A stretch of 64,000 nt of DNA. It comes from Bacteroidia bacterium. GTDB taxonomy: Bacteria; Bacteroidota; Bacteroidia; J057. Position numbers and translations under genes: made by a program. Location of the stretch: NCBI GenBank assembly GCA_030430205.1, contig JAUIGE010000006.1, positions 1 through 64,000 of the forward strand, given 5' to 3'. The notes under the pieces were generated by a model. It did no database searches, was not told the DNA's origin, and saw only the letters and a list, made by a program, of their open reading frames with translations. Shown in pieces: positions 8,199-53,962 of the stretch (the first letter of the stretch is position 1; each line of letters starts with the position of its first letter).

Positions 8199-8201
8199 GT
8201 C

Positions 8202-15069: not shown

Positions 15070-18000
15070 ATGCTAAGACTTACACTTTACCTTTCAAAAC
15101 CGCCCTTGCTAAGGCGGGTGCTCATGCTATTTTTGCTCGTGGGCTTTTGCCTTCCGGGCTGGTCGCAGACTTATTCTGACTCCTGGGATGGCACCAAGTC
15201 TGGTGATCATCATGTAACCAATAATGGTTCAGACTATACTGTCACCCTCACCTGGTCCAATATCCTAAGCCCCACAGACGGCTCCTGGGCTACCCCCTGT
15301 GACTGTAATGATGTGGGCCTGCAGCAAGTACAGTATGGTACAGCTGAAAATTCACAAAGGAGTCCTTACTCCAATCCTGTCCTGAGCTTTGGAGGTAATG
15401 GAGGGGGAACCTTGACTTCCTCAACCGCCAATGTAGGACCAAGTTTTAATCAAACCCTCCACCTCTGGATCCGCATCGATGGGCAGGACGATGCCTTTTT
15501 GGATCCTTGTGGGTCTGAATGTGAGAACTATGGATGGTCAGTCAATACTGCCCTTTTTACTATCCGTACAGCTAAGATTAAAAATCCTATCAACCTGGAT
15601 GCCTCAGATAATGAATCAGAGGGATCTTTGCTCAACAGGATCGTCCTGACTTGGGAAAAGGGGACTGACATTCCAGCCGCAAATGTAGGCTACAAGATTT
15701 ATCGGGGCAGCACCCTTATCCATACAACTGCGATAGGAGATGAAAGTTATACCTATACCGATAGCTTAACGACCCCCGGGGGGCTTCCTGCGGCAGGCTC
15801 ATCTTATACCTACAAAGTACAAACCTACACCAATGATTGGGGAGGAGATACCTCTACCGGAGCGACTAATATCGGCTCGACTCTGAGCCTCTCCCTGGAT
15901 GCATCCAATGGCACATTTCCTACTAAAGTAAAGCTAAGCTGGAACAGCGTTTCTACCTCCGCGGATAATATCCGCATAGAGCGCTCCATCCCCTTGGCCC
16001 AGCGCCCTTCAAGTATCACCAGCCGTACAGATACGGTAGAGGAATTAAACATTCTCAACAAACATGCGAAAGCATATACTGATACGGATGTCATCCCAGG
16101 ATATCTCTATAACTATTATATAACTGCCCTCAATGAGGACGGCAATGATATAGTAACCTCCACAGACAAAGGCTGGATGAAACCCAATGGCACCATCAAA
16201 GGGCAGGTAAGTTCCAGAGGCGGAGCAGGGGTACAAAATGTGTTGATAACTGTCGCTTATGATGGAGCGCTTGATGCCAATAAAGCACCCGCCAATAGTG
16301 GGTATAACGGCCCATTTACTGCACTGACAGATGTGGATGGCTACTATGAGATTCGAAATATTTACTATTATGACAGTGCGCGCTTTTCCATCACCCCTTC
16401 TTACCTGAGTCATGGATTTACCCCTCCTAATTCTTTTCGAATTCTTGATTTGAATGGACGAACCCAAACAGGGGTAAACTTTACCGATACCACGGCTATT
16501 ACGGTTTCGGGCTATGCAAAATTTCAGGCCCCCAGTCTCTTTGGAGGCGCATCGGGTGCAGGTTTTGGGGTGGAAAAAGCCACCATTGCCATTAATGGCG
16601 TGGATTATGGAATTCGCACCGACGAGGATGGTTTTTGGTCCTATGCCCTTTCTGATTCAGGAAATTATGGGTTTAAGATTTATTATCTGCACCATCAATT
16701 TTTGGCAGATTCCCTCAATTTTGATATTGGAAATGATAAAAACGACATTGATTTTCTCAATATGCAGGTGGACTCAATTGAGGTTCGCGTTCAGGATGGA
16801 TGTCAAAATCCGTTGAAGACCATCAGCACCCAGGCCGGAGGTACAGTAGAACCTCAGATCAAGGTGGTTCATACGAGAGGGACAGCTTTCTTCGATGGTA
16901 ATTTTTCTGTAAATGCTACCGGCAATGCCACCATCGTGCTCCCTGCAGGCAGCTTCCGGTTATCGGTTGATAATCCTGCAGGCACATCGGTTCCGCACAG
17001 GATTTTTGATGGGGCTCAACGCGCCCAACTGGATACCATTGATTTTGACTTTGACCTGAGTCTGAGAGACTCCATGGTGGTTGTTCTCAGTGATACCATT
17101 TGGACGATTATTCCTCCGGATACCCTCTCCACGACCGACAGCCTTGGCAATCCTATTATATTGCCAGGTAGCAGTAGTTATGTGGTAAATGAGGATACCG
17201 TGACCCAATCTCTCGATTGGCAGGCAGACTTTGTCTATTTTGGCCCCTTTGAAGTGATTGCCTTTTGGGAAGACGCGGGCGCAGAAATATTTAAAGACTG
17301 TAATGCAGGAGGGACTTCTCTTTCAGACTCCATCATCCTCCTGGAATCCAATGTCTCCTATCCCCTTACCCTATGGATCACAGATGCAGCCTCGGGCTGC
17401 GCAGTGGACACGGGTTCCATCAAAATCTGGGATTTTGTGAGTGATAAAGAAAGTAGCCCCGCTACTCTGCCCATTCAAAATGGCTATGCATATTATTTGG
17501 TTGAGGCCGGCATCCCCAATGTATCCTCAGGCGGGAGCAATCCACATCAAAAGTATTTTTATACAAAAACCTCAGCAGGAGCGCGCGCAGATGTTCCCAA
17601 TGACTGGTGGGTGATGGTGACAGGAGCCCAAAGTCTTTCTCCTACTTTTACCTCCAGATCTCCTCAGTTACCTGATATTGTGATCCACGATCCTCCGGGA
17701 GATAATAGCTATTCATGGATAGAGAAAGGATCCAATTATCGGTATTTTTCCAATACTTCCTATGAGATCTCCGGATCGGGCGGATTTTACCTGGATTTAC
17801 TTTTTGGGACCTCTATCAAAACACCGATTTCGGGAACGAATCTAGGCGTAAGATGGCAATTGGATTTTCAGGCAGGCAGGGAAAACTTCACCAATAATGT
17901 CTATGAGAATAATATCACTTTCACAGAAACCTTTTCTACTTCTGCTGATCCCTTATTTACCGGAAATGATGGAGATGTATATGTAGGAAAAGCTACCAAC

Positions 18001-21000
18001 CAGCAATTTGCGATCGCCAAAGTGCTGACCTACAACGATTCCTCCAATTGTATCGCTCGGGTGGATGATAAACCCGCCCTGTATCCTTTAGGGATTGCTA
18101 CCACTTTCATCTATTCAGAAAAACACATCAAGAATGTAGTGATTCCTCAAATTGTCTACCTGGACTCCGCCCTGAGGCGGCAGGCACGAAAGACAGCACC
18201 CGGCACAGAAAGAAGCGACCTGGTAGCTGAAGCTGACTCCTTTGGGATGGACGCCAGTAACTGGAGAAGTATTTTAGGTGTGGTAGATGCCGCAAGGGGT
18301 GTCAATGCGATTCCGTATGAAACAGGAAATAAAAACATTTCCTTCAGTTCGGGTGCCAGCTATGAAAATGTAGTTCAGCAGGACACCACCTCCGGTGGGA
18401 GTTATTTATACACAGCATTTGTAGATATAGAAACGGCCTTGGGCGCTCGTTTTCAGCAGGAGGGCGGAGCCTGGCTGGAGAGTCAGCTGGGTATCGCTGC
18501 AAAATTCAGGCATTCCTTTACCAAAGATGAAGGAAATGACACCACCAATACCCTGACCATAGGCTACCATCTTGAAGATGATGACATCGGTGATTATTTC
18601 AGCGTGGATATCCTCAAAGATACCGTCTTTGGTGTACCTGCTTTTAAGCTATTTGCCGGGACAAGTAGTTGTCCGCATGAAGATGGCACCCAGCCTCGTG
18701 ATTCTGCTGAGTTCAACATATTCCCTCCTGATGGTGTCCACAACATCCCCATAGGTGGCGCAGGCAATATGACGGCCTATTTAACCAATGTAAGTGCAAG
18801 CCAGGAAGCACGAGAGTACCATGTGCGGGTGATTCCCAATACCAACCCACAAGGGGCTGTCATCAAGATCGGAGGCAGGATCATCAACAATACAACGGCT
18901 TCCTTTTTCCTGGATCCTTTTCAAACAACGGAGGTTGCCCTTACCGTGGAGCAAGGCCCTACAGCGGCCAACTATGACAGCATAGGTATCATGATGTATC
19001 CCCCTTGTGAATATGAGTTGTGGGAAAACAACGGCAACCTGACGAGCGGAGATACGACCTGGCTTTTTGCCAGTTTTCAGAGTGAGTGTACCCAAATCTC
19101 CCTCAACGAGCCCGTACAGGGTTGGCTAGTCAATGCCAACAGCAACAACCAATTGCTCTTTGATTTTGCGGGATATGACCTGAATAATCCTTATTTCAAC
19201 AGCATTACCATTGAGTATAAACCCAATGGCCAAGGCTGGCTTGTGGGCCCCAGCATCCCAAGGGACAGCATCGTAGATGTGATCCACACCTATCTTCTCG
19301 ATGTGAGCGGATATCCAGACGGGGCCTATACGCTAAGGGCCCGGGCCAATTGCAGCTCCGGAAAAGGAACCACCTATTCTACCGCAGTTAGCGGCCGGAT
19401 CGACCGCAATTCCATCGGACCATTTGGGATACCTACCCCTTCAGATGGCTTTCTGCGATTGGGACAGGAGATTTCGATCACCTTTGACAAAGACATAGAC
19501 TGCGGATTCAATGATCCCGCACCCACCTATGCGACGACCATCAGTCTCATGCGGACCGACGACAGTACATTTATCCCCCTGACTGTGCAATGCTCTGAAA
19601 ATCAGGACCGCATCATCCTGGTTCCAGGGATAGATCTCTTTAACATGCCAGAACTGGAAGGGGTACTCCTGATTGCCTCTGTGCAGGGGATACAGGATGA
19701 TCAGGGAAACAGCCAGGATTATCCCATCACCTGGGCCTTCCTCGTAAATGCCAGCCCGGTCAACTGGGATCCTGATACCCTGGATGTGGCATTGTCGGCA
19801 GGATTTTCACATACCATCAGCAGCACGCTCAAAAATACCTCAGTGCTGAGCAAAGCTTTTACCATAGAAAAATACCCTGTATGGCTGACACCCACCACCC
19901 TGGCAGGCTCGGTCCTCTCCAATGGAGAATATGAAATCAATTTCCTCGTTGACCCGACCTTGCCTGTAGGCATTTACTCAGATACGGTGACAGCCATGAT
20001 CAATGGTTGGCCTGAATACCTGATTATCAACTATGAGGCTTTGGCTGTGCCACCCAATTGGAAGGTAAATCCAGAGGATTATACCTATTCCATGAGTGTG
20101 GTAGCCGTTTTCAGTCTGGACCAGACGGATACCAACCTATCCAGAAATGACCGCGACCTCGTCGCAGCTATTTTCAACGGAGAAGTCAGAGGAATTGCCC
20201 AATTGGAATACGTGGAACGATTTGACAAATACATGGCTTTTATTACCGTATATTCCGACATCATTGCCAATGAAGAGATAAACTTTAGCCTGTGGAGAGC
20301 TTCGAATGGGGTAGAATATCGGGCAGCAGAAACCCTTTTCTTTGCGGATAATGCCATTTATGGGCGCATAGGAGCACCCGAAATTTTCCATACAGATGGC
20401 GTATACCAGGTTATCCCCTTAAAACAGGGCTGGAACTGGGTTTCCCTCAATGTGGACAACAGTGACATGACAATCCACAACCTGCTCAATTCTTTGGGTT
20501 CTCCTCAAGTCGGAAATGACATCACCGTGAAGCGCAAGGACGGGAGTACCGCTCAATATACCCAAATAGCTACTCCTATCATCTTTGCCAATCAATGGAC
20601 CGGAACTTTGGCTCAATTGGATAATAAGCAGGCCTACCAGATACATTTATCTGATGTGCCCGATACTTTGCGGATACCAGGGACACCTATCACCCATTTT
20701 TCCAATATAGATGTGCTCAGTGGATGGAACTGGATAGGCTTCCAGCCTCAATCTGCTCAGCCTGTAGGGCAGGCTCTGAGTTCTCTCAACCTGCGTAACC
20801 AGGATCTCCTCAAGAGCCAGGAATCTTTCAGCGAATACCACAAAGGTTGGGATGTCTGGTATGGTCCGCTCCGTTTTATGGAGCCTGGCAAAGGCTACAA
20901 GCTCAAACTAAAGAGCGGTGTAAATTACAACGACCTGATATATAGCCGCTTAGGCACAGAGGATTTTCAGGTGGACCATACGCGTTTTGAAAGCAGCATG

Positions 21001-21594
21001 ACTATTGTTGCCAAAATCGGCTTCGAAAACGAGCTCCTCGTCGACCATAAGCAGCTGAATGAAGAAAGACTTCTGATCGGTGCTTTCATGGGAGACAGCT
21101 GCCGTGGATATGGTCAGCTGGAGTGGGTAGAATTTATGGGGGAATACCAGGCTGTTTTCTCTGTGCATGGAAACCAGGCTGACCTGGGTCGCGAAATGGA
21201 ATTCCGTGTTTATGATACCTTTTCCGGTCATGAATTTGCTTGTCCCAAAAAGCCGGAAAAATATATCAGTGATTACTTCCTGGGCCATGTGCGTGATCCC
21301 TATGTGCTCTTCGAGCGCCTTGCCCTGCCAGAGGCAGGCTACTTCCTGGAGCAAAACTATCCGAATCCTTATGATTCGAAGACCTCTATTCGCTTTATTC
21401 TGCCGCAGGCAGAGCATGTAAGGCTGACGGTCTTTGACCAGTTTGGAAAAAAGATCCAACTGCTCCTTGATGAGGAAATGAGCGCAGGCGAGCATACTGC
21501 CATATTTGAAGCAGCTAAGCTGCCGAGTGGAATCTACCATTATTCGATTGAAGCCGGAGAATTCCGGGCAAGCCGGAAGATGGTCAAGTTTTAA
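15070..21594 (+). CDS. Giant T9SS-secreted surface protein, paralogue 1
   Basis: 2174 residues. Signal peptide 1-33 (WSQ end); divergent head 34-173 with CDC and C..EC cysteine pairs; Fn3-like domains about 174-262 and 272-358; two transthyretin/carboxypeptidase-regulatory-like domains about 374-570 (TDVDGYYEIRNIYYYDSA, RTDEDGFWSY); a long beta-rich centre of unknown fold with HDPPGDNSYSW near 874 and a SSCPHEDG Cys; an Ig-like domain near 1453-1560 (PTPSDGFLRLGQ..ITFDKDID); then the mirrored modules A (about 1673), B (GWNWVS, 1787), B' (GWNWIG, 1885) and A' (1975). Residues 2088-2174 are the T9SS sorting domain (NYPNPYDSK, ending KMVKF). It should cross the outer membrane and be released or anchored at the surface. 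No enzymatic motif is visible. By segment it is like copies 4 and 5 in the middle, 3 and 4 in the A-B modules, and copy 2 at the very end. Confidence 0.9.
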   Translation: MLRLTLYLSKPPLLRRVLMLFLLVGFCLPGWSQTYSDSWDGTKSGDHHVTNNGSDYTVTLTWSNILSPTDGSWATPCDCNDVGLQQVQYGTAENSQRSPYSNPVLSFGGNGGGTLTSSTANVGPSFNQTLHLWIRIDGQDDAFLDPCGSECENYGWSVNTALFTIRTAKIKNPINLDASDNESEGSLLNRIVLTWEKGTDIPAANVGYKIYRGSTLIHTTAIGDESYTYTDSLTTPGGLPAAGSSYTYKVQTYTNDWGGDTSTGATNIGSTLSLSLDASNGTFPTKVKLSWNSVSTSADNIRIERSIPLAQRPSSITSRTDTVEELNILNKHAKAYTDTDVIPGYLYNYYITALNEDGNDIVTSTDKGWMKPNGTIKGQVSSRGGAGVQNVLITVAYDGALDANKAPANSGYNGPFTALTDVDGYYEIRNIYYYDSARFSITPSYLSHGFTPPNSFRILDLNGRTQTGVNFTDTTAITVSGYAKFQAPSLFGGASGAGFGVEKATIAINGVDYGIRTDEDGFWSYALSDSGNYGFKIYYLHHQFLADSLNFDIGNDKNDIDFLNMQVDSIEVRVQDGCQNPLKTISTQAGGTVEPQIKVVHTRGTAFFDGNFSVNATGNATIVLPAGSFRLSVDNPAGTSVPHRIFDGAQRAQLDTIDFDFDLSLRDSMVVVLSDTIWTIIPPDTLSTTDSLGNPIILPGSSSYVVNEDTVTQSLDWQADFVYFGPFEVIAFWEDAGAEIFKDCNAGGTSLSDSIILLESNVSYPLTLWITDAASGCAVDTGSIKIWDFVSDKESSPATLPIQNGYAYYLVEAGIPNVSSGGSNPHQKYFYTKTSAGARADVPNDWWVMVTGAQSLSPTFTSRSPQLPDIVIHDPPGDNSYSWIEKGSNYRYFSNTSYEISGSGGFYLDLLFGTSIKTPISGTNLGVRWQLDFQAGRENFTNNVYENNITFTETFSTSADPLFTGNDGDVYVGKATNQQFAIAKVLTYNDSSNCIARVDDKPALYPLGIATTFIYSEKHIKNVVIPQIVYLDSALRRQARKTAPGTERSDLVAEADSFGMDASNWRSILGVVDAARGVNAIPYETGNKNISFSSGASYENVVQQDTTSGGSYLYTAFVDIETALGARFQQEGGAWLESQLGIAAKFRHSFTKDEGNDTTNTLTIGYHLEDDDIGDYFSVDILKDTVFGVPAFKLFAGTSSCPHEDGTQPRDSAEFNIFPPDGVHNIPIGGAGNMTAYLTNVSASQEAREYHVRVIPNTNPQGAVIKIGGRIINNTTASFFLDPFQTTEVALTVEQGPTAANYDSIGIMMYPPCEYELWENNGNLTSGDTTWLFASFQSECTQISLNEPVQGWLVNANSNNQLLFDFAGYDLNNPYFNSITIEYKPNGQGWLVGPSIPRDSIVDVIHTYLLDVSGYPDGAYTLRARANCSSGKGTTYSTAVSGRIDRNSIGPFGIPTPSDGFLRLGQEISITFDKDIDCGFNDPAPTYATTISLMRTDDSTFIPLTVQCSENQDRIILVPGIDLFNMPELEGVLLIASVQGIQDDQGNSQDYPITWAFLVNASPVNWDPDTLDVALSAGFSHTISSTLKNTSVLSKAFTIEKYPVWLTPTTLAGSVLSNGEYEINFLVDPTLPVGIYSDTVTAMINGWPEYLIINYEALAVPPNWKVNPEDYTYSMSVVAVFSLDQTDTNLSRNDRDLVAAIFNGEVRGIAQLEYVERFDKYMAFITVYSDIIANEEINFSLWRASNGVEYRAAETLFFADNAIYGRIGAPEIFHTDGVYQVIPLKQGWNWVSLNVDNSDMTIHNLLNSLGSPQVGNDITVKRKDGSTAQYTQIATPIIFANQWTGTLAQLDNKQAYQIHLSDVPDTLRIPGTPITHFSNIDVLSGWNWIGFQPQSAQPVGQALSSLNLRNQDLLKSQESFSEYHKGWDVWYGPLRFMEPGKGYKLKLKSGVNYNDLIYSRLGTEDFQVDHTRFESSMTIVAKIGFENELLVDHKQLNEERLLIGAFMGDSCRGYGQLEWVEFMGEYQAVFSVHGNQADLGREMEFRVYDTFSGHEFACPKKPEKYISDYFLGHVRDPYVLFERLALPEAGYFLEQNYPNPYDSKTSIRFILPQAEHVRLTVFDQFGKKIQLLLDEEMSAGEHTAIFEAAKLPSGIYHYSIEAGEFRASRKMVKF
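15099..15120 (+). other. Coding hairpin early in giant gene 1
   Basis: accgcccttgctaaggcggg folds into a GC-rich stem with one bulge, 29-50 nt after the start codon, encoding the KPPLLRR segment before the hydrophobic core of the signal peptide. Similarly placed hairpins occur in giant genes 3, 4 and 5. Confidence 0.5.
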
Positions 21595-21615
21595 AAAACG
21601 CCTGTAGGCATTTGA

Positions 21616-21661
21616 AAAATCCGCTGGTCGGGGGTACATCCTGGCTGGCGGATTTTGCTTT
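21616..21661 (+). terminator. Terminator of giant gene 1
   Basis: Arms aaaatccgc (21616-21624) and gcggatttt (21648-21656), then gcttttt, 21 bp after the stop codon. The 23-nt loop has its own short pairing. Rho-independent type is probable. Confidence 0.6.
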
Positions 21662-21840
21662 TTGGGGGCCTTTTTCTTCGTGTAAAGGGCATTTGTATTT
21701 TTTAAAACGAAAAATGAAACAATCTGAATAGTTGGAAAAATAACACAGTATTTTTTCGACTTAGGATAATTTATACTTAAATTGAAAATGTACACATAGT
21801 CAACAATTTCTATTCACTTCACCTATAATTTCAAATCATT

Positions 21841-24800
21841 ATGCGAAAAATTACCCTTTTTTCTGGCAGGTGGTCTTATCCAGGGCTACTTGGCTTACTC
21901 ATTTTGCTTATTGGCTTCAGTCCACAGGGCTGGGGGCAAACCTATTCCGATAGCCATTCTGATGCCTATGTCGGTGGCCCCTATTCTGTAACCAATGGCG
22001 GTTCAGATTATACTGTCAGCATTGGTTGGACCACTGCTTTTCGAGCTACCAACCAGGGATATTGCGATTGCCACACCAATACCGAGGACCTGGAGTTTGG
22101 CACCACCCAGGGTGAAAACAACCGCACACCTGTCTGGTCCACCAGTAATGCCGCAGATAATAACGGCAATACCGGCGACATCATTTTGGGACCAGGCTAT
22201 TCCGATACATGGTACATCTACACGGAGGCAGATGGAGATGATGATGCTCTTTTTAGCTGCTGGGTAGATTGTGACGCCAGAGCATGGTCCGGAGGTGGAC
22301 TGTGGGTGAGAACAGCCCCTTTCAAAAATCCCTCCAGCTTTGTCGCCTCCAGCACTGAAGGAGAAGGTTCTCGCCTCAACAAGGTTGTGCTGAGTTGGGG
22401 CAAGGCAACCCACTTTCCGGAAGGATATACCCAGTATGTCATATACCGTAGGGTCGCAGGGGTAGGCAATTATGCCCATCTTGTTACCCTGGGAGGGGAT
22501 GCCAGGTCTTATGAAGACCTCCAGGTATCTCCCAATACCACCTATGATTACAAAATCACCACTTATTCCAGCTATAGTCAGCGCCTGGCCTCTGCCGGCA
22601 CGGATGTAGGAGAAATCTTGAAAGTCGCCGCCACTGCTGGCTGGGGCAATCTGGAATCTACAGGTTCCTACGATCAGGGACAAACCCTTACAGTGAATTT
22701 GGATGCCTCAGATGGCACCTACAAAACCAAGGTGACACTCAGCTGGAACAAGGTTTCTACCTCAGCCGACAACATGAAGGTAGAGCGAAGCCTGCCGGGC
22801 AGCAATCCTATCAAATTTGAAGAATTGGCCATATTGAACAAACATGCCACGGCCTATACTGATACAGACGCCCTTCCGGGCTTCCAATATACCTACCGGG
22901 TAAGTCCGCTGGATGAGAATGGAGATCCTCTCCAGGAAGTGGATAATCCCGGCCACATGAAAGCCAATGGCATAGTTAGAGGTACCGTCAGGGCGCTGGG
23001 AGGCGCAGGGGTACAAGGCATTTCGGTATGTGTATTGCCGCTCAATCCGGTGGTACCGGCGGGTGTGAATACCGTCCCTGCCGCAGGCTATTGCACCACC
23101 ACCGATGCCGGTGGCAACTATGAGATCAGGAACATCTACTATTACGATAGTGCCTCTTTTGTAGTGGTTCCCTCCTACCCCAACCATGTTTTTGGGCCAC
23201 CTTCACGGGTACTGGTACTGGACCTCACCACCAATATTCAACCCGGCGTAGACTTTACAGACTCTACTTCAATTAGTATTTTTGGTAGAGTTCACTTTCC
23301 GCCAGCCTCTGACTTTGGGGCAAGCGGTGCCAACCTGATCGGAATCCGAAAGGCCAAAGTCCTGCTCGACACCCTCGACCGGGGCATACGCACAGATGGA
23401 GATGGCAATTGGTCCTATGCTGTGACCAATCCCGGAGTCTTTAAGTTCAGCGTCCAATATGAAACCCACGGCTTCAAAGCGGATCCCCTTTTTGCAGATG
23501 CCACCGGAGATACAGCGGTAGTCACCATCCTGGATCAGGACGTCAACGGAGTGGATTTTATAGACCAACAGAAAGATTCTGTGCTGATACGCGTGCAGGA
23601 TGGCTGTGGCAATCCCCTTGCCGTCACCCCCAATGGCAATGGCTCTACCCCCCGGGTAAAAGTGACCAGTCAGAAAGGGCCGACCTATTTTGAGAAATAC
23701 GTCTCCATGAGCAATACAGGCTTCGCCAAAGTCGTATTGCCTGCTGCGGACTTTCAGATCAATGCATTGGATGATCCTCCTTTCACCAATGGCAATATAG
23801 CGGTCCAATTGATGGATACGACCCTCAAATACGAACTCGCTACCCGGGACTCCTCCCTGCAGGTGACCAGCGATACGACCCTGGACATCACCCCCAGCCG
23901 GGTGGTAGTCATCAACGGGACCTCCGTTACCCTGCCCCCCGATACGGTCTTTAACATCACCAGAGACTCTATGTATCGCTCCATCCAGCCCAGAGCGAAT
24001 TTTGTCTATTATGGTCCATTCCTCATCACTGTCAATTTTGAGGACGCAGGCGCAGAGGTATATCCCGGCTGTAAAGCCACAGGCTTGGGTACCAGTGCAG
24101 ACTCCATCATCCTGATGGAAGTAGGCGCCCGCTATGGCATCCAGTTCGAAATCTTCGATCAGTTTTCGGGCTGTGCCGTGGATACGGGACAGGTTTTGGT
24201 TTATGATTACATCAGTGACCAGGAGCGCACGCCTTCGACTTTACCGATCAAAAATGGCGTGGCCTTTTACACCATAGAAGGGGGCGAGCCCAATGTCGCA
24301 TCCGGTGGAGCCAACCCCTACCAAAAATTGTTTTTTGCCAGCGTCTCGGCAGGTGTCCGGGAAGCACAGGACAAAGGCTGGTGGATCCTGTTACAGGGTG
24401 CCAAGGAGTTGACACCCACCTTTACCTCACGCTCCCCTGAAATACCCGATTTGGTGATCCATGATCCTCCCGGAGACAACAGTTATGCCTGGGTGGAAAA
24501 AGGTTCCGTTTACTCTTCCTTTTCCACTACTGAGCGGGAAATCTCCGGCTCAGGAGGGCTCTATGGAGATATGATTATAGGGGGAAAAGGAAAATCCGCT
24601 TTGGGATTGGGTGTAGCCACCCTTTTCGATGTAGGTGCAGGTGCCAAAATCGTTTTTGACTATGATATTGGCCGGGAGAATTTTGACAAAGCAGGCTATC
24701 GCAGTACCTACTCCTTTGAAGAGAATTTTTCAACCTCAAGTGATCCGCTATTTACAGGGCATGAAGGTGATGTATATGTGGGAAAAGCTACCAACCAGCT

Positions 24801-28494: not shown

Positions 28495-28625
28495 ATCCTG
28501 AAAATATTTTTTATTCCAGCAGCTGTAAATTAGCTAATCCCCAAAAAAAAGAGTTAATTATTGCGATTTTCTAACCTCTTATTAGGACAGCCATTCCTAA
28601 TGACACACATAAATTTGTGATTTAT

Positions 28626-46237: not shown

Positions 46238-46278
46238 GAGAGGCGGGAAGCGGGAAGCGAGAGGCGGGACGTGAGACA

Positions 46279-46323
46279 GGAGAGGATAAAAGGATTTTAC
46301 GGTCCTTTTGTCCTCTCTTTTTT
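46279..46323 (+). terminator. Terminator of giant gene 4
   Basis: Stem agaggataaaagga (46281-46294) with tccttttgtcctct (46303-46316), 8-nt loop, then a T run. Nearly the same terminator follows giant gene 5 (54032-54077), so the two genes share a duplicated 3' flank. Confidence 0.9.
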
Positions 46324-46456
46324 GGGGCTTGATCAAAGGTGAAAGGTTGAAAATAGGGAACTATGTGTAAGAGAGAATTGACGCAGGTTCTCGCTGGTTT
46401 GACTGATTTTCAATGTTAAGAGGCTTGTTTTTGATGAAAGCTTGCTGATAGGGAGG

Positions 46457-46490: not shown

Positions 46491-46541
46491 TGTATACTTT
46501 TAGCAAAAAACAGCCATTGAAGACGCGTCTATTATTTCTCT

Positions 46542-47237
46542 TTGCTGCTAGCAGCCTATTTGCTACTTGGATTTCAATTTGTTTATGCTCAGGTAGACAG
46601 CCTGTTGTTGGTAATTCAGCAAAATAAGCCTTCCGATAAAATACATGCCTATTTTGAGTTGGGCAGGCGTTTCAGCAGAAACATACCTGATTCAGCTTTA
46701 TGGTATCTGAATGAAGGGATTTCTCTGGCTGAAAAAGAAAAAGACAAGCATAGCATGATTCCCCTTTTTCTTGTCAAAGGCAATATTTTGAGAGACCAAG
46801 GGAAGTTCCCACTAGCCCATGATGCATTTGAGCGATGGTATGAACTTGCCAATCATTTTGAGGGAAATAAGGCTTTTGCACGCTATTATTACAACTATGG
46901 CATTCTCCTGAAAAAACAAGGAAAGTAGAATGAGGCGCTTGAATACTACCAGAAAAGTATCCCTTATTACCAAAAGGAAAATGACCTACGCGGAGCAGGT
47001 AGAATCGCTAATAGTATAGTCAGCGAACCGCACCAGGCGCGCATCCTCACCGATGAGGATTGGCAAACTTTTCGCCAATTGTTCGATGAAGTCCACAAGA
47101 CATTCCTGGCGAACCTGGTAGAAAACTATCCCCTTCTCAGCAAAGCAGATCGCCGCCTGCTTTCTCTAATGAAGCTAAAGCTTGATACAAGCCGCATGGC
47201 AGAAATGCTTGAAGATAGAGAAGCATTAGACAAATAA
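46542..47237 (+). pseudogene. Degraded TPR-LuxR-type transcriptional regulator
   Basis: Codons 1-128 encode a signal peptide (FQFVYAQ end) and TPR repeats typical of Bacteroidota TPR sensors. A TAG stop at 46926-46928 interrupts the frame, but the same frame continues for 102 more codons: another TPR (NEALEYYQKSIPYYQKEND), then an abrupt switch after NSI to the conserved pre-HTH region of TPR-LuxR regulators (ILTDEDWQTFRQLFDEVH, LLSKADRRLLSLMKLKLDTSRMAEML). The membrane helix and coiled coil expected between them are missing, and so is the recognition helix (the usual IS..SV.KAR). So there are at least three lesions: nonsense codon, internal deletion, C-terminal truncation. It is probably a dead regulator of the giant array; the first 128 residues could still be made and exported. 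Confidence 0.8.
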
Positions 47238-47295
47238 CAAACTGATAGTCAGCCATTTATCTAGCTGGCTATTTTTTTGTCCCCCTTTTTGTCCG

Positions 47296-47321: not shown

Positions 47322-47398
47322 GTGAGCTAGGTTGGAGCCAGTTCAGGAGAAACCATGTTGAATCCTTCCTTTTCTATTCATCTGAAAATACCAACTAC

Positions 47399-50300
47399 AT
47401 GAAAAAAGAACCCGACTACTCTTCAAACTTTGTTCTTCCCCAAGAGGCGGGGGGTAAACCAACCCCCCGTATCCGTTTTCTTCTTCCAAAAAGCCTGAAG
47501 GCTTTTTCCTGTTTGCTTATTTTTTTATTGAGCGTGAATGTGTCTTCCTTAAGGGCATCGAATACCGGGGAGGATGATCCGACCCGGACAGAAAATGGCC
47601 AAATCAGCGTATCTACAAACAGTGACTGGTTTATAACTGTGAGCTGGACAAGTTCTTTTACTTCTGGTTCCTGTGATTGTGGCGTTGACGAAAGGTTACT
47701 TGAAGCGTATTCTGGAGGGTATATATATGGAACCTCTGTAAGCTTTGAAGCCCGCATTGATGTAACGAATCTCCCGGGTGCCAACTCCGCAAAGATTGTC
47801 GTAGGGCCTGAATATAATAAAGATTGGTACATGAATCTCAGGACCCTGGGAGAGGATAAAAACGTGTTTGGAACCTGTGCAGTCAATTGTTCCCAAACGT
47901 TTTTTATAGGCAGTCGACCCAATCCGGTTATAGAAACGCCCCGTACGGTCCGAATCAAAAATCCCAAAAACGTGACCGCTTCTCAAACCAATCAGCAGGG
48001 CTCTCAGCTGAAGGCCATCAAAATACGTTGGGAAAAAGGATCCGATATCCCTGACTCGCTCATCTCCTACCGCGTATACCGGGATGGCGTACCCATTGCG
48101 GACTTAGCAGGCGATGAATATGAATACCTGGATACCCAACTGAGCCCGGGAACCAGCTATGTATATACCCTGAAGACCTTTATATCCCACCAGGATGGCA
48201 TAACGCTTTTTGATTTCAAGGGATGGGAAAAAGCCTCTACCGGCACCGATGCCACAGGCAAGACCCTCGCTCTGGACCTGGATGCCTCCGATGGTACATC
48301 AGCCAAGCATGTCAGGCTGACCTGGCCAGGAATGGCTACCTCCGTAGACAATTTTCGGCTGGAGCGCAAGCCCAGTGGAGGAAGCTATGAGGAAATCGCC
48401 ATTCTGAATAAAAATGCGACCAGCTATACCGACTCAGATCCCATTCCCGGATTTGCCTATAGCTATCAGCTATCGGCCCTGGACCCCAATGGAGCAACCA
48501 TTCAGGCCATCACGGACGATGGCCACCGCAAGCCCAATGGCATCATCAAAGGGAAAGTCATTTCCCGGGGTGGAGCAGGCGTACAAAATGTAACCCTTAC
48601 CGTCACCTATGATGGCAGCTTACCAACGGATAAAGCACCTGCAAATACGGCTTTTCTCCCGCCCTATACTATCCAGACAGATGTAGATGGCTATTATGAG
48701 GTGCGCAATATTTATTACTATGATAGCGCAAGATTTCAAATCACGCCCTCCTACCAAAGTCATGGATTCACGCCGGAAAAATCATTCCGCATCCTAGATG
48801 TAAGCAACAATACCCAAGCAGGGATTGATTTTACAGACACTACAGCTATTACCGTTGCTGGAAAAGTCAACTTTCGAGCACCTGATTTTTTTGGTGCCAC
48901 GGGTGACGATTGTGGAGTGGAAGGAGCGAAAGTGACTATCAATGGCACTGACTTTGGCATCCGCAGTGATGAAACGGGCTATTGGTCCTTTTCACTTTCT
49001 GATTCCGGCAACTATAGCTTCGAGGTTTCCTATTTGCAACATAGCTTTCAGACAAGCTCCCAGAATTTTGATATAGGATCAGATAAAACAAATATTGATT
49101 TCTTGGATATACAGGAAGACTCCATCGTCGTCCGTGTGCAGGATGCCTGCCAAAACCCCTTAGCTACTTTAGATTCATCAGAAACACCACAGATTCGCGT
49201 CATTCATAAAAATGGCCAGGCATGTTTTGATGGTCTATATCCCGTAAATGCCAATGGATTTGCGACCCTTGTCCTCCCTGCCTCGGAGTTTAAATTATCC
49301 GTGGATAATACCCCATCTGCCCCTCATCGAATCTTTGATGCGGCGCAGCGGGCACAGTTGGATACAGTCACCTTTGGTTTTGACCTGGGTAAACGCGATT
49401 CTGCGGTCGTATATTTATCAGATACTGTCTGGACCATCACACCTCCCAAAACACTCTCCACCCTGGATTCTGCTGGAAATCCCATTGTAATTCCTGGGGA
49501 TACCAGTTTGGTGATCACACGTGACTCCATGATGAAATCCCTGGACTGGCAGGCTGATTTCGTGTATTTTGGTTCCTTTGAGCTTATTGCACTTTGGGAA
49601 AATGCCGGGGCGGAGATATTCCTGGATTGTAACACATTGGGGGCTTCAACCGGAGATTCGGTCATTGTACTGGCTTCGGGCCAGACTTATCCCCTTGCCT
49701 TCCAGGTAAGAGATGCAGTGGCAGGCTGTGTGGTGGATACCGGTTCTATCAAAATCTGGGACTTTGCCAGCGACCGGGAAAATAGTCCGTTGACGATTCC
49801 TATTCAAAATGGTCTTGCATTTTATGAAATGACGCCCGGCACCCCCAATGTAGCATCGGGCGGCGCCCATCCTTACCAAAAATACCTATATCTTGAAACT
49901 ACTGCAGGCGCCCGCAGCAGTGACCCCAGTGAGTGGTGGGCTATGGTCACAGGTGCCAAACAGCTCACCCCTACTTTTACCAGTCGTTCACCTGAGTTTC
50001 CCACTCTCGTGGTTCATGATCCTCCCGGCGACAACAGTTATTCATGGGTTGAAAAGGGCTCCACCTACCGTTCTTTTGAGAATACCTCCTATGAAATCTC
50101 GGGCTCTGGTGGGGTGTACACGGATTTGACACTAGGTATTGCGCTCAAAACGCCTTTCTTTGATAACAAAGTAGGGATACATTGGAAATTTGAACTCAAC
50201 GTGGGCAGAGAAAATTTCTTCAATTCACAGTATGAGTCCAATGTGACCTTCACAGAGACTTTTTCCACTTCTGATGATCCGCTGTTTACCGGTCATGACG

Positions 50301-53300
50301 GAGATGTCTACATCGGAAAAGCCACCAATCAACAATTTGCTGTCGCAAAGGTACTTAGCTACAACCAGTCTGCCAGCTGTGAAGCGGATGTCTCTGATGA
50401 GCCTGCCATGTATGTAACAGGCATAGCGTCAACCTTTATTTATACCGAAAAGCATGTCAAAAATGTATTGATCCCTCAGATTGTGTACCTGGATTCTATA
50501 TTGAGAAGACAAGCCAGAAAAACAACTGACGCTGCGCAAAGAAAAATTCTGATATCGGAAGCAGATTCTTTCGGAATGGACGCATCTAACTGGCGCAATA
50601 TCGTCATCGAGGTGGATTCGGCCCGGGGACCACACGCCCAACAGGTTGAAAACATTTCCTTTAGTGCTGGTGCGACCTATGAAAAAGTGGTAGAGGTAGA
50701 CAGTACGATAGGCGGCAGTTACTTATTTACCAACTTTGTGGATTTGGAAACTTCTATCGGTGCGAAATTGGAAGTAGATGGAGGAGGCTGGTTAGATAAT
50801 ACCGCAGGCTTTGCCTTCAAAGCGCGACATTCATTTACCAAAGATAAAGGGGAAGATTCAACAAAATCCTTCAAGGTAGGCTATAAATTTGCGGACAAAG
50901 ACATAGGAGATTTCTTCAGTGTAAATGTCAAAAAGGACCTTCTTTTTGGTGTGCCAGCCTTTGAATTATATGCCGGGACCAGTAGCTGTCCCCATGAAGA
51001 CGGAACGCAGCCGCGTGATGCCGCGCGATTGGAGATTCTCCCACCCGTACTCAATGATATACCCAATGGAGGCACAGGCATCTATACGGCTTACCTGACC
51101 AATGAAAGTGAAAGCCAGGAGGCACGGGAGTACCATGTGCGGGTCATCCCCCAAACCAACCCGCTGGGGGCAGTTGTCAAAGTCGGCGGACGTATCATCA
51201 ATAATACATCAGCCTCCTTCTTCCTGGATCCCTTTCAGACAGCTGAAGTCGTCCTTACTGTGGAGCAGGGCCCATCAGCCGCCAACTACGAGGACATCGC
51301 TGTCATGATGTACCCTCCCTGCGAGTATGAATTGTGGGAAAATAACGGCAACCTGACCAGTGGAGATACGGTCTGGATCAGTGCCAATTTTCAAAGTGAA
51401 TGTACCAACATATCCCTCAATGAACCCGTTCAGGGCTGGCTTGTTAATGGAAATAGCAATAACAGCTTGCTTTTTGACCTCGCGGGCTACGATCTCAACA
51501 ATCCTTATTTTGAGAGCGTCACCATCGAATATAAACCCAATGGTCAGGGATGGCTTGATGGTCCCACCATCCTCCGGGAGGATATCACAAATACGCTTTA
51601 TACTTACCTCCTGGATGTAAGTGGTTACTCGGATGGAGCTTATACCGTAAGAGCAAGAGCCAACTGCGGTTCGGGCAAAGGGAAGACCTATTCTTCTGCT
51701 ATCAGCGGCATCATTGACCGCAACTCTATCGGGCCCTTTGGGACCCCTACTCCATCTGATGGATTCCTGCGCCTGGGGCAGGATATCTCTGTCACTTTTG
51801 ATAAAAACATCGACTGTGGATTCACTGACCCCAGCCCCACCTATCCTGTTGAGATCAGTCTGATGCGTAGCGATGACAGTACCTTTATTCCCCTGACCAT
51901 TCAGTGTTCAGAGAATGAAGACCGCATTATCCTTGTCCCTACGATTGATCTTTTCAGTATGCCTGAACTGGAAAATGTACTGCTGGTAGCTTCTGTTTTG
52001 GGCATACAAGACGACCAGGGCAATCGCCAGGATTACCCTATCTCCTGGGCATTTATCGTCAATGCAAGTCCCGTAAACTGGGACCCTGACACGCTGAATA
52101 TTGCCTTAGCTGCAGGTTTTGAACATACCATCAGCAGTACCCTGAAGAATACTTCTGTACGCAGTAAAGCATTTACCATCGAGAAATATCCAACATGGCT
52201 GACCCCTACAATCCTATCAGGCGCTGTGCTGTCCGATGGAGAGTATGAAATCAATTTTCTGGTTGATCCAGGCTTGCCGGTAGGGATGTATACTGATACC
52301 GTAGTAGCCATGATCAATGGCTGGCCAGAACACCTCATTATCAATTATGAGGCATTGGCTGTACCGCCTAACTGGAACGTGGACGCCGGAAAGTACAGCT
52401 ATTCGATGAACATGGTCCTCGCTTTCAGTCTGGATCAAAGCGACACCAATCTTTCCCGCGATGAGCGTGACCTCGTGGCCGCCATCTACAATGGAGAAAT
52501 CAGGGGCGTTGCCCAGCTGGAGTATGTCTCACGATTCAACAAATACCTGGCTTTCCTGACGGTATTCTCTGACATCCCCGCCAATGAAGAGCTTTCATTT
52601 AGCTTATGGAGAGCTTCCTCCGGGGTGGAATATATCGCCAAGGAGACCTATTTCTTTGCCAGTGAGCAAATATACGGGCAGATCAACAATCCTGAAATCC
52701 TGCATACAGATGGCGTTTTCCAGCTTGTTCCACTCCAGCAAGGCTGGAATTGGGTATCCCTCAATGTGGACAATGCCGATATGACCATCAACAACCTGCT
52801 CAATTCGCTGGGTTCTCCTGAGGTAGGCAACAATATCACAGTCAAGCGCAAAGACGGCCAAACCGCCACCTATACCCAGATCGCTACGCCGATCATCTAC
52901 GCCAACCAATGGTCCGGAAACCTGACCCAATTGGACAATAAGCAGGCATATTTGATCCACCTGTCCCATGCGCCGGACACCTTGCGCATACCTGGAAAGC
53001 CCATCACGACCTATTCCAACATTGATGTCCTCAGCGGATGGAACTGGATTGGCTTTCAGCCCCAAACGGCTCAGCCGATTGGCGATGCGCTGAGCTCCCT
53101 CAACCTCAGAAATCTTGACCTGCTCAAAGGCCAACAGGCCTTCAGCCAGTACCACAAAGGCACCGATACCTGGTTTGGTCCGCTCCGGTTTATGGAGCCC
53201 GGCAAGGGCTATAAGCTCAAGCTAAAAGATGGACAGACCTACAATGACCTGACTTACAGCCGGTTGGGACTAAAAGATTTTGTGGTGGACCATACGAAGT

Positions 53301-53962
53301 ATGAGAGTAGTATGACGCTGATAGCTAGTATTGGCGAGTTGGCAGTCGGCAGTGGGCAGGAAACAGTTGGCAGTTGGCAGTTGGCAGGAGGAAGTACACT
53401 GCCAACTGAAGACTGGATACTGAAGACTAAAGACCGCCTACTGGTTGGTGCTTTCATCGATGATACGTGCCGAGGCTATGGCTTTGTGGAGTATGTGCCG
53501 TTTCTGGAGGAATACCGGGTGATTTTTAGCTTGCAGGGCAATGCTTCGGATATTGGGCGCAAGTTGACTTTCAAAGTCTATGATACGCAAAGCGGGCAGG
53601 AGTTTATTTCTGACAAAATGGAAGAGGTCTACATCACGGATCGCATTCTGGGCGAAATGATGGAGCCTTTTGTGCTCTTCGAGCGCCTGGAGCTGCCGGA
53701 GGCAGGCTACTTCCTGGAGCAGAATTATCCGAATCCTTATGATTCGAAGACGACGATCCGCTTTATCCTGCCTGAGGCAGGTCTGGTGAAGCTGACCGTC
53801 TATGATCAGATGGGTAAAATCGTAAAGGTTTTAGTCAATGAAGATTTGAGCGCTGGTGAGCATACGGCCATCTTTGAGGCGGAAAACCTCCCGGCTGGTG
53901 TCTACCACTATACGATTGAGGCCGGTGAATTTCGGGCGAGTCGGAAGATGGTGAAGATGTAG
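47399..53962 (+). CDS. Giant T9SS-secreted surface protein, paralogue 5
   Basis: 2187 residues. An n-region of about 35 residues (EAGGKPTPRIRF) precedes the signal-peptide core; cleavage is near LRAS (about 53). Head about 54-190 with CDC and GTCAVNC cysteines; two Fn3-like domains, the first with a longer insert (SHQDGITLFDFKGWEKA); transthyretin-like domains; beta-rich centre with HDPPGDNSYSW; Ig-like domain (PTPSDGFLRLGQ); modules A, B, B', A'; sorting domain in the last 87 residues, ending KMVKM. The centre groups with copies 1 and 4 up to PPNW (about 52,375), then switches to copy 2-like modules (MVLAFSLDQSD, SDIPANEE). A' carries an in-frame palindromic insertion, longer than that of copy 2. 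It is the clearest chimaera in the array. Confidence 0.9.
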   Translation: MKKEPDYSSNFVLPQEAGGKPTPRIRFLLPKSLKAFSCLLIFLLSVNVSSLRASNTGEDDPTRTENGQISVSTNSDWFITVSWTSSFTSGSCDCGVDERLLEAYSGGYIYGTSVSFEARIDVTNLPGANSAKIVVGPEYNKDWYMNLRTLGEDKNVFGTCAVNCSQTFFIGSRPNPVIETPRTVRIKNPKNVTASQTNQQGSQLKAIKIRWEKGSDIPDSLISYRVYRDGVPIADLAGDEYEYLDTQLSPGTSYVYTLKTFISHQDGITLFDFKGWEKASTGTDATGKTLALDLDASDGTSAKHVRLTWPGMATSVDNFRLERKPSGGSYEEIAILNKNATSYTDSDPIPGFAYSYQLSALDPNGATIQAITDDGHRKPNGIIKGKVISRGGAGVQNVTLTVTYDGSLPTDKAPANTAFLPPYTIQTDVDGYYEVRNIYYYDSARFQITPSYQSHGFTPEKSFRILDVSNNTQAGIDFTDTTAITVAGKVNFRAPDFFGATGDDCGVEGAKVTINGTDFGIRSDETGYWSFSLSDSGNYSFEVSYLQHSFQTSSQNFDIGSDKTNIDFLDIQEDSIVVRVQDACQNPLATLDSSETPQIRVIHKNGQACFDGLYPVNANGFATLVLPASEFKLSVDNTPSAPHRIFDAAQRAQLDTVTFGFDLGKRDSAVVYLSDTVWTITPPKTLSTLDSAGNPIVIPGDTSLVITRDSMMKSLDWQADFVYFGSFELIALWENAGAEIFLDCNTLGASTGDSVIVLASGQTYPLAFQVRDAVAGCVVDTGSIKIWDFASDRENSPLTIPIQNGLAFYEMTPGTPNVASGGAHPYQKYLYLETTAGARSSDPSEWWAMVTGAKQLTPTFTSRSPEFPTLVVHDPPGDNSYSWVEKGSTYRSFENTSYEISGSGGVYTDLTLGIALKTPFFDNKVGIHWKFELNVGRENFFNSQYESNVTFTETFSTSDDPLFTGHDGDVYIGKATNQQFAVAKVLSYNQSASCEADVSDEPAMYVTGIASTFIYTEKHVKNVLIPQIVYLDSILRRQARKTTDAAQRKILISEADSFGMDASNWRNIVIEVDSARGPHAQQVENISFSAGATYEKVVEVDSTIGGSYLFTNFVDLETSIGAKLEVDGGGWLDNTAGFAFKARHSFTKDKGEDSTKSFKVGYKFADKDIGDFFSVNVKKDLLFGVPAFELYAGTSSCPHEDGTQPRDAARLEILPPVLNDIPNGGTGIYTAYLTNESESQEAREYHVRVIPQTNPLGAVVKVGGRIINNTSASFFLDPFQTAEVVLTVEQGPSAANYEDIAVMMYPPCEYELWENNGNLTSGDTVWISANFQSECTNISLNEPVQGWLVNGNSNNSLLFDLAGYDLNNPYFESVTIEYKPNGQGWLDGPTILREDITNTLYTYLLDVSGYSDGAYTVRARANCGSGKGKTYSSAISGIIDRNSIGPFGTPTPSDGFLRLGQDISVTFDKNIDCGFTDPSPTYPVEISLMRSDDSTFIPLTIQCSENEDRIILVPTIDLFSMPELENVLLVASVLGIQDDQGNRQDYPISWAFIVNASPVNWDPDTLNIALAAGFEHTISSTLKNTSVRSKAFTIEKYPTWLTPTILSGAVLSDGEYEINFLVDPGLPVGMYTDTVVAMINGWPEHLIINYEALAVPPNWNVDAGKYSYSMNMVLAFSLDQSDTNLSRDERDLVAAIYNGEIRGVAQLEYVSRFNKYLAFLTVFSDIPANEELSFSLWRASSGVEYIAKETYFFASEQIYGQINNPEILHTDGVFQLVPLQQGWNWVSLNVDNADMTINNLLNSLGSPEVGNNITVKRKDGQTATYTQIATPIIYANQWSGNLTQLDNKQAYLIHLSHAPDTLRIPGKPITTYSNIDVLSGWNWIGFQPQTAQPIGDALSSLNLRNLDLLKGQQAFSQYHKGTDTWFGPLRFMEPGKGYKLKLKDGQTYNDLTYSRLGLKDFVVDHTKYESSMTLIASIGELAVGSGQETVGSWQLAGGSTLPTEDWILKTKDRLLVGAFIDDTCRGYGFVEYVPFLEEYRVIFSLQGNASDIGRKLTFKVYDTQSGQEFISDKMEEVYITDRILGEMMEPFVLFERLELPEAGYFLEQNYPNPYDSKTTIRFILPEAGLVKLTVYDQMGKIVKVLVNEDLSAGEHTAIFEAENLPAGVYHYTIEAGEFRASRKMVKM
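47448..47469 (+). other. Coding G/C hairpin early in giant gene 5
   Basis: Perfect 8-bp stem cggggggt / accccccg with a 6-nt loop, 50-71 nt after the start codon, encoding GGKPTPR ahead of the signal-peptide core. Very stable for this AT-rich genome and could slow early translation. Confidence 0.6.
53332..53440 (+). repeat. In-frame palindromic insertion in giant gene 5
   Basis: Three overlapping copies of CAGTTGG at a 7-bp period (53364-53385) with the inverted GCCAACTG at 53401-53408, all translated in frame (VGSWQLAGGSTLP). It lies at the same alignment position as the insertion in giant gene 2, but is longer. Confidence 0.7.

What the first reader, a model, noticed from the sequence alone, without database searches (positions are those of the whole stretch)
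15070..53962. Array of five giant T9SS-secreted paralogues with a hybrid regulator inside it
Five genes of about 6.5 kb lie in the same orientation, with a complete HTCS regulator between copies 3 and 4, a dead regulator between 4 and 5, and a second related HTCS beginning at 62.5 kb. Seen: shared architecture from signal peptide to sorting domain, and individual terminators after each copy. Known: T9SS exports such proteins to the surface of Bacteroidota, and HTCS regulate neighbouring genes. Inferred: a dedicated, ligand-controlled surface-protein system. The central 1,000 residues match no family I recognise.
Basis: partly seen in the sequence, partly recalled or inferred. Interest (0 to 1): 0.82.

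Follow-up and report, generated by a model that had tools for sequence, protein, structure and literature searches.

The report
Sensor-linked giant secreted surface protein family
Five very large, related proteins that this bacterium appears to export to its cell surface belong to an undescribed family that often sits beside environmental-sensor genes in several bacterial lineages, and their shared middle part is predicted to form two long hairpins of a kind that can enter membranes, so they may be more than simple adhesives.

Summary
Five ~2,170-residue paralogues with a type A T9SS sorting domain lie head to tail, with an HTCS between copies 3 and 4 and a second HTCS (53% identical) from 62.5 kb. 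The finding is larger than reported: the genome has 11 full-length copies, eight on this contig over 83 kb. The middle matches no Pfam or NCBIfam family. AlphaFold2 predicts two hairpins of ~35-residue strands around a helical hairpin, then Ig/FN3-like domains. Hairpin-2 profiles favour beta-pore-forming toxins among PDB sequences, but no hit is significant and a reversed control behaves alike, so this shows hairpin chemistry, not kinship. Relatives occur in 12 of 395 sampled Bacteroidota genomes, with a sensor kinase within 4 kb at 15 of 26 loci; here 4 of 4 giant loci but 0 of 29 other T9SS-tail genes have one within 5 kb. N termini diverge while C termini are homogenised by recombination. 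Best reading: sensor-controlled, recombining surface-recognition proteins. Membrane insertion is possible but unproven. Against a conserved dedicated array: the same-genus genome has no copy, and the nearest holder has two unlinked copies without kinases.

The parts
15070..21594 (+). Copy 1 of the giant family (2174 aa)
   Evidence: ORF; translation; sorting domain
21841..28437 (+). Copy 2 (2198 aa)
28617..35105 (+). Copy 3 (2162 aa from GTG; ATG at 28626)
39764..46237 (+). Copy 4 (2157 aa)
47399..53962 (+). Copy 5 (2187 aa)
35238..39374 (+). HTCS 1: Reg_prop/Y_Y_Y sensor, HisKA, HATPase_c, receiver, AraC-type HTH
62501..64000 (+). HTCS 2, continues to contig position 66697; 53% identical to HTCS 1; the next best full-length relative of HTCS 1 in the genome is 33%
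17701..18027 (+). Hairpin-1 segment of copy 1 (alignment A7)
18334..18588 (+). Hairpin-2 segment of copy 1 (alignment A8)
24475..24822 (+). Hairpin-1 segment of copy 2
25114..25371 (+). Hairpin-2 segment of copy 2
31173..31520 (+). Hairpin-1 segment of copy 3
31812..32069 (+). Hairpin-2 segment of copy 3
42371..42697 (+). Hairpin-1 segment of copy 4 (the copy that was modelled)
   Evidence: AlphaFold2 model
42788..42967 (+). Helical hairpin between the two beta-hairpins, copy 4 (model residues 293-352)
42992..43246 (+). Hairpin-2 segment of copy 4
50030..50356 (+). Hairpin-1 segment of copy 5
50651..50905 (+). Hairpin-2 segment of copy 5
20050..20385 (+). NW module ('PNWxVxPxxYxYSM...') of copy 1; the same module is a separate downstream gene in several relatives
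46542..47237 (+). Remnant of a TPR-type regulator (broken ORF)
14139..14834 (-). Small exported-looking protein beside copy 1; one match in the genome; relative beside one giant gene in G003. Belonging to the system is uncertain

Best explanation
A multi-copy family of T9SS-exported giant surface proteins that work as environmentally induced recognition/contact proteins. Shown from sequence: type A sorting domain, one shared architecture (diverged Cys-bearing N-terminal part, FN3-like and CarboxypepD_reg-like domains, a predicted two-hairpin module, Ig and FN3-like domains, repeated C-terminal modules, sorting domain), 11 copies, C-terminal ends homogenised by recombination while N-terminal ends diverge, and linkage to sensor kinases. 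Inferred: each cluster's sensor detects an outside cue and switches on nearby copies; the protein is exported by T9SS and held at the surface by its tail; the diverged N-terminal end decides what is bound, and recombination among copies supplies new combinations. The two-hairpin module is inferred to be the working part that acts on the bound surface or on a partner molecule; whether it enters a membrane or builds a stalk is left open (the first two rivals below are readings of this module and are compatible with the rest).
For: Sorting domain over cut-off in 5 of 5; SprA_N and PorP_SprF present in the genome. In this genome 4 of 4 giant loci have a kinase domain within 5 kb, against 0 of 29 other T9SS-tail genes (1 in 40,920 if labels are dealt at random, my arithmetic; the 5 kb limit was set after seeing the data, at 3-4 kb it is 3 of 4). 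15 of 26 loci of the family have a kinase gene within 4 kb; 0.09-0.19 per locus is expected from kinase density. Identity of window copies to their nearest copy falls from 71-88% over the last ~500 residues to 23-40% in the first ~160. Trees of the middle and of the C end conflict: forcing copies 2+3 together in the C end is rejected (AU p = 2e-62), and copy 7 groups with G003 in residues 375-1200 (support 88) but with this genome's own copies in the C end.
Against: G003 has two copies with no kinase found nearby, and no member was found in G001, same genus. No shared upstream motif: best 10-mer in 5 of 11 upstream regions, six shuffles 5-7. Terminator-like sites separate the genes, so HTCS and giants do not look like one operon. 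Kinase linkage of the three singletons alone is moderate (chance about 0.16 each at 5 kb), and three or more kinases in 83 kb is not unusual (P about 0.11). Copies 2, 5 and 8 are 9-11 kb from the nearest kinase domain. No ligand, expression or localisation data.
Confidence: 0.6

Rival explanations
1. Membrane-active reading of the module: it works like a beta-pore-forming domain. Surface-displayed giants bind a neighbouring cell through their N-terminal end, oligomerise, and insert the two hairpins into its membrane. Sensor control would restrict this to contact with prey or competitors.
For: AlphaFold2 predicts two hairpins with ~35-residue strands around a helical hairpin. Of 72 ten-residue blocks of the core the six richest in Ser/Thr lie in or directly next to the hairpin stems, while the tips are Gly-rich and hydrophobic with locally strong beta-amphipathicity; in 34 of 36 rows the richest Ser/Thr 20-mer lies in a hairpin region that makes up 22% of the sequence. 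Hairpin-2 profile against 177,635 PDB sequences: 4 of 4 hits at E<10 are toxins (CEL-III 0.026, monalysin 0.049, two chains named 'Toxin' 0.45 and 2.1); with 25 divergent rows 6 of 7 are, the other a phage major tail protein. That these are beta-pore formers is recalled except where named so. Ig-domain control from the same proteins: 31 of 35 hits are PD-1, no chain named as toxin. Hairpin 1: LSL hemolytic lectin (E 0.086) is the only hit that spans the hairpin.
Against: No hairpin-2 hit is significant. The reversed hairpin-2 profile also finds membrane strands and toxins (four FapF chains, a secreted coleopteran-active protein, LSL), so the signal is composition and alternation, not homology. 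Six hairpin-1 hits score better than LSL, all on another segment. Averaged over whole regions the beta-moment of the hairpins (0.28, 0.29) is no higher than that of the Ig and FN3 parts (0.27, 0.29), and some blocks outside are as high. The 50 rows shown of each fold search hold no pore former aligned to the hairpins. No pore-forming family among 11 Pfam families matched by any of 36 rows. No immunity gene identified. Hairpin tips are the least confident part (pLDDT 62-75).
Confidence: 0.27
2. Structural reading of the module: the long hairpins pair between molecules to build stiff surface fibres or a sheath, as in giant adhesins and tail-tube proteins; no membrane is entered.
For: Ig/FN3/LamG-rich architecture typical of adhesive fibres; partner genes in relatives look like fibre parts: tail-fibre-like proteins with Collar, Gp10_C or Peptidase_S74 matches, a cadherin-repeat protein and PorP/SprF beside L045; one hairpin-2 hit is a phage major tail protein.
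Against: Tail-fibre-like and separate NW-module genes were not found around the 11 copies of this genome in the stretches examined; hydrophobic, Gly-rich tips are unusual for a soluble stalk (inference).
Confidence: 0.35
3. Glycan capture: the giants are HTCS-induced surface glycan-binding proteins feeding a polysaccharide pathway.
For: HTCS are a major class of regulators of polysaccharide utilisation in Bacteroides (start of the abstract of PMC11253607 in the listing); LamG domains in relatives; two proteins at 7176-9251, 6-8 kb before copy 1, hold sugar-binding domains of glycosyl hydrolase family 2.
Against: By eye, no SusC/SusD-like pair among the ORFs of contig positions 1-120,000 (not tested by HMM); no carbohydrate-binding family over cut-off in the five proteins.
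Confidence: 0.16

Closest known systems
TANFOR-containing polymorphic toxins of Bacteroidetes (PMC7073777, outline and sections 6 and 9 read)
   Same: Large Bacteroidetes proteins linked to T9SS substrates, with FN3 domains enriched in the neighbourhood
   Different: TANFOR proteins carry a TANFOR N-terminus and often a C-terminal toxin domain with a downstream immunity gene; here no TANFOR row was returned, the C-terminus is a sorting domain and no toxin domain is known
BSAP / MACPF antibacterial toxins of Bacteroidales (PMC12853789, passages read)
   Same: Surface-exposed, receptor-specific, pore-forming proteins of Bacteroidota; two inserting hairpins per MACPF unit (recalled)
   Different: BSAPs are lipoproteins with Pfam MACPF PF01823; no MACPF match in any of 36 core rows nor in this genome at E<=1e-10
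Aerolysin-type beta-pore-forming toxins (CEL-III, monalysin, LSL)
   Same: Ser/Thr-rich alternating hairpins; such toxins are what the hairpin-2 profile favours among PDB sequences
   Different: Two hairpins and a helical hairpin per chain here, inside a ~2,150-residue Ig-rich protein; no significant match, and a reversed control behaves alike
SprB-type T9SS adhesins with PorP/SprF
   Same: T9SS-exported giants; one distant relative (L045) is followed by a cadherin-repeat protein and PorP/SprF
   Different: Type A sorting domain here; no PorP/SprF on the window's contig (one on the contig of copy 11, about 146 kb away)
'LamG' proteins of Flammeovirga kamogawensis p1 and Aureibacter tunicatorum pAT1
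   Same: Contain the same core; annotated tail fiber protein upstream (Flammeovirga), T9SS-tail protein downstream (both), 'ATP-binding protein' with kinase signature next (Aureibacter)
   Different: Larger (2,975 and 3,341 aa); one giant with the core seen per stretch fetched

Membership tests
T9SS type A cargo proteins | C-terminal Por_Secre_tail / TIGR04183 domain | tested here: met
   Over cut-off in all five by Pfam and in the three scanned by NCBIfam
T9SS type A cargo proteins | Genome encodes T9SS | tested here: met
   SprA_N E 7e-140; PorP_SprF in 4 places; other components not searched
T9SS type A cargo proteins | Protein is found at the surface and needs T9SS | not testable with these tools
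   needs proteomics and a T9SS mutant
HTCS regulators | Reg_prop/Y_Y_Y sensor, HisKA, HATPase_c, receiver and AraC HTH in one chain | tested here: met
   for both HTCS
HTCS regulators | Controls the neighbouring genes | tested here: inconclusive
   linkage yes; no shared upstream motif
Beta-pore-forming toxins | Membrane-inserting amphipathic beta-hairpin | tested here: inconclusive
   model and composition fit; profile hits not significant and reproduced by a reversed control
Beta-pore-forming toxins | Oligomeric pore, lytic activity | not testable with these tools
   bench work
MACPF proteins | Pfam MACPF (PF01823) | tested here: not met
   none of 36 core rows, none in G000 at E<=1e-10
TANFOR polymorphic toxins | N-terminal TANFOR domain | tested here: inconclusive
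   no TANFOR row; I did not confirm that the library holds a TANFOR model
SprB-type adhesins | SprB repeats and an adjacent PorP/SprF gene | tested here: not met
   no SprB repeat row; no PorP/SprF on the window's contig

The most novel reading that the evidence does not exclude
The shared core is a new kind of two-hairpin, membrane-inserting (beta-pore-forming-like) module carried on T9SS-displayed giant proteins, expressed under environmental sensors and diversified by recombination: a contact weapon or membrane-docking device with variable N-terminal recognition ends, spread thinly over several lineages of Bacteroidota and not met in the papers listed by the ten searches made.
Probability: 0.27. 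Interest if true: 0.87.

Novelty: new variant of a known kind. Interest (0 to 1): 0.62.

Why it matters
A core of ~700 residues without a Pfam or NCBIfam family is found in several lineages of Bacteroidota, labelled 'LamG' in the two annotated records seen, and tends to sit beside sensor kinases. If the hairpins insert into membranes, T9SS would gain a new kind of contact effector, which bears on the question, raised for TANFOR toxins, of whether T9SS acts in bacterial competition. If they do not, the family is still a sensor-linked, recombining surface-protein repertoire, testable by deleting the HTCS genes.

Tried and rejected
Complement/alpha-2-macroglobulin likeness: Foldseek's best PDB rows include C3, C5 and A2M, but TM-scores are 0.11-0.23 and rmsd about 30-50 A; VIA-align places most close matches on the flanking Ig and FN3-like domains, so I take this as arrays of Ig-like domains. 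BFVD rows are likewise mostly Ig-rich phage proteins. MACPF membership: not met.

Homology of hairpins 1 and 2 to each other: hhalign probability 13.5% over 21 columns, not supported. Homology to pore-forming toxins: rejected as a claim, because the reversed profile gives similar hits.

Shared regulator site upstream of the 11 copies: none beyond shuffles. SprB-like partner: no PorP/SprF gene near the giants. The small gene at 14142-14834 as an immunity gene: its domain also heads long ORFs (~900-1,000 residues, TPR-like or coiled by eye) in relatives in which no full-length giant was found (G010 only coarsely searched), so it stays a lead.

Papers: ten searches on type IX secretion with Saprospira, pore-forming, LamG, tail fiber, giant and others. 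No listed title or abstract describes this family, but lists were capped (for instance 15 of 39, 5 of 205, 6 of 100). Beyond listings I saw PMC7073777 (outline, two sections) and passages of PMC7914777, PMC9468336 and PMC12853789. PMC4007468 is not held, so that the CEL-III match lies on its pore hairpin is recalled, not read.


Full report
What is there. CarboxypepD_reg is over cut-off in copies 4, 5 and 6 (copy 4 barely, 32.8 against 32.3 bits) and below it in copies 1-3; FN3 is over cut-off in copy 6. The HTCS between copies 3 and 4 is complete. The second HTCS is complete too, 53% identical, and far closer to the first than the next full-length relative in the genome (33%), so the pair looks array-specific. 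Terminator-like hairpins follow the copies. The 'dead regulator' is a TPR-regulator remnant.

The array is larger. A profile of the five finds 11 full-length copies in the genome: eight on this contig (15-98 kb) and one each on three other contigs. HTCS 2 lies directly before copy 6. Before copy 7 lies a LytTR receiver gene followed by a TPR protein with a kinase domain.

Distribution. With the five-row profile, 7 of 149 genomes including this one have a match at E<=1e-60 (at most two candidates per genome were scored). Scored fully in 10 genomes (E<=1e-20): G003 of the same family has two full-length copies; G001 of the same genus has none; G009, G012 and G051 have partial matches; the other five have none. 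With the core profile, 12 of 395 sampled Bacteroidota genomes including this one match at E<=1e-20. In genome contigs, 20 loci were returned, 6 of them matching far more than the sorting domain. Two plasmid records hold the core, in Aureibacter tunicatorum and Flammeovirga kamogawensis, annotated as LamG proteins.

The middle of the protein. No Pfam or NCBIfam family covers it (each of 36 core rows scanned alone). AlphaFold2 on a 36-row alignment gave mean pLDDT 83.8, pTM 0.62: Ig-like strands, a hairpin with strands 157-193 and 198-232, a shorter strand pair, a helical hairpin 293-352, a second hairpin with strands 370-404 and 406-440, then Ig-like (about 484-605) and FN3-like (605-714) domains. 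Confidence falls to 62-75 around the hairpin tips. The C-terminal model (pLDDT 71.4, pTM 0.42; residues 432-524 of it below 50) shows a PapD/MSP-like Ig domain (Z up to 14.3) at copy 1 residues about 1560-1658.

Are the hairpins membrane hairpins? Averaged over 36 rows, the six ten-residue blocks richest in Ser/Thr (of 72) lie in or directly next to the hairpin stems, and the tips combine high Gly and hydrophobicity with locally strong beta-amphipathicity. Against this, region averages of the beta-moment are no higher in the hairpins (0.28, 0.29) than in the Ig and FN3 parts (0.27, 0.29), and single blocks elsewhere are as high. The richest Ser/Thr 20-mer lies in a hairpin region in 34 of 36 rows, although these regions make up 22% of the sequence. 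Against PDB sequences the hairpin-2 profile returns at E<10 four toxins and nothing else, and with 25 divergent rows six toxins and a phage tail protein; that all of them are beta-pore formers, matched on their membrane hairpins, is partly recalled. The whole-core profile had CEL-III first at E 0.11 and a ribosomal protein second. Hairpin 1 gives LSL at 0.086, but six chains named Cake, Bagel or 'Cell surface protein' (designed propellers, recalled) score better on another segment. Two controls: an Ig segment of the same proteins gives 35 hits, 31 of them PD-1, none named a toxin; the reversed hairpin-2 profile gives six hits, four chains of FapF, one secreted coleopteran-active protein and LSL. 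The second control means that the resemblance is one of chemistry and strand alternation, and not evidence of descent. A single-sequence search with the copy 4 hairpin-1 region found only a complement control protein at E 0.58.

Sensors next door. Kinase-domain matches in this genome: 85. Kinase domain within 5 kb: all four giant loci (three of four at 3-4 kb, two at 2 kb), against 0 of 29 other genes with a T9SS tail. Those 29 are the other tail matches, gene extents estimated from open frames, some clustered together; the 5 kb limit was chosen after seeing the data. Gene by gene, copies 1, 3, 4, 6 and 7 of the array are within 5 kb of a kinase domain and copies 2, 5 and 8 are not, so with the three singletons 8 of 11 genes. 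In position-shuffled terms the link is weaker: each singleton has about a 0.16 chance at 5 kb, and three or more kinases in 83 kb P about 0.11 (contig lengths partly estimated). Over 26 loci (this genome 4; G003 2; G311 2; G312 2; G172 1; G386 2; G259 1; G213 1; G324 1; G291 2; G440 1; G474 1; G433 2; L045, L049, Aureibacter, Flammeovirga one each) a kinase gene lies within 4 kb in 15: this genome 4, G311 1, G312 1, G172 1, G386 2, G259 1, G213 1, G324 1, G291 1, G433 1, Aureibacter 1. For G312 and G172 the kinase is read from the genome hit position and the start of the giant; the other G312 locus counts as a miss, though gene calling there is crude and the list is capped. The G291 kinase passes the cut-off for HisKA_3 but is just under it for HATPase_c. 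Expected per locus from density is 0.09-0.19. Loci of one genus are not independent (G213 and G324 share one). The sensors are of three kinds: Reg_prop/Y_Y_Y kinases, TPR kinases and HTCS.

Other partners. Among the 34 giants whose surroundings were scanned, nine, in six other genomes, are preceded on the same strand by a small exported-looking tail-fibre-like gene; of five such proteins scanned, four have Collar, Gp10_C or Peptidase_S74 matches and one has none; Flammeovirga's is annotated 'tail fiber protein'. A separate gene with the NW module of the giants follows eight of the 34. In L045 the neighbours are a cadherin-repeat protein with NW module and PorP/SprF. Neither a tail-fibre-like nor a separate NW gene was found next to the 11 copies here.

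Evolution of the copies. Window by window, the nearest copy is 23-40% identical in the first ~160 residues and 71-88% over the last ~500. Trees conflict: copies 2 and 3 pair in the middle (support 63 for residues 375-1200, 99 for 1200-1620) but not in the C end, where that pairing is rejected (AU p 2e-62; logL difference 165); copy 7 joins G003 in residues 375-1200 (88) but copy 10 in 1200-1620 (62), whereas all 11 copies are separated from G003 and G311 in the C end (support 100). I read this as gene conversion keeping 3' ends alike, also between unlinked loci, while 5' ends diverge. Short GTTGGCA-type repeats lie inside the coding sequence of copies 2 and 5 near the C end.

Mechanism, with steps marked. 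Shown by sequence: sorting domain, T9SS genes, HTCS anatomy, linkage, recombination. Read by eye: signal peptides, repeated C-terminal modules. Inferred: an outside cue activates the sensor, nearby copies are expressed, T9SS exports and anchors them, the variable end binds a surface. Open: what the two-hairpin module does. I put membrane insertion at about one in four, with the structural-fibre reading slightly ahead of it.

Limits. 

Noticed in passing
window 14142-14834 (-); L066 6682-7341: A 231-aa exported-looking protein, one match in this genome, lies about 235 bp from copy 1; its best relative among 13 family genomes (37-41% identical) lies about 404 bp from a giant gene in G003. Distant relatives in other family members head longer ORFs.
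   Followed up: partly
window 46542-47237: Broken TPR-type regulator between copies 4 and 5, with a stop and a displaced downstream piece.
   Followed up: partly
window 27834-27909 and 53338-53413: Short GTTGGCA-type tandem repeats sit inside the coding sequence of copies 2 and 5 and lengthen them relative to copies 1, 3 and 4; 12 matches in the window, 10 of them in these two places, against 0.49 expected.
   Followed up: partly
window 54238-54792 and 54848-55753: Two adjacent secreted-looking proteins share an identical first 20 residues but then differ (DUF6924 in one, MORN and TPR repeats in the other), as if a signal-peptide region was copied.
   Followed up: partly
window 46238-46340 and 53963-54090: The stretches after copies 4 and 5 share purine-rich repeats and nearly the same terminator, as if duplicated with the genes.
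   Followed up: no
window 56152-61854 (-): An RND efflux operon (OEP, ACR_tran, HlyD-type adaptor) lies between copy 5 and HTCS 2.
   Followed up: no
window 7176-9251 (-): Two adjacent ~345-aa proteins made of glycosyl hydrolase family 2 sugar-binding-type domains without a catalytic domain match.
   Followed up: no
L093-L105, L108: Recurrent order tail-fibre-like gene, giant, NW-module gene, often with kinase and receiver genes upstream, in distant Bacteroidota; deserves its own study.
   Followed up: partly
L103 and L108 (G433), L093 and L094 (G386): Giants also occur in tandem (G433, two copies each with its own tail-fibre-like gene) or about 30 kb apart start to start (G386).
   Followed up: partly
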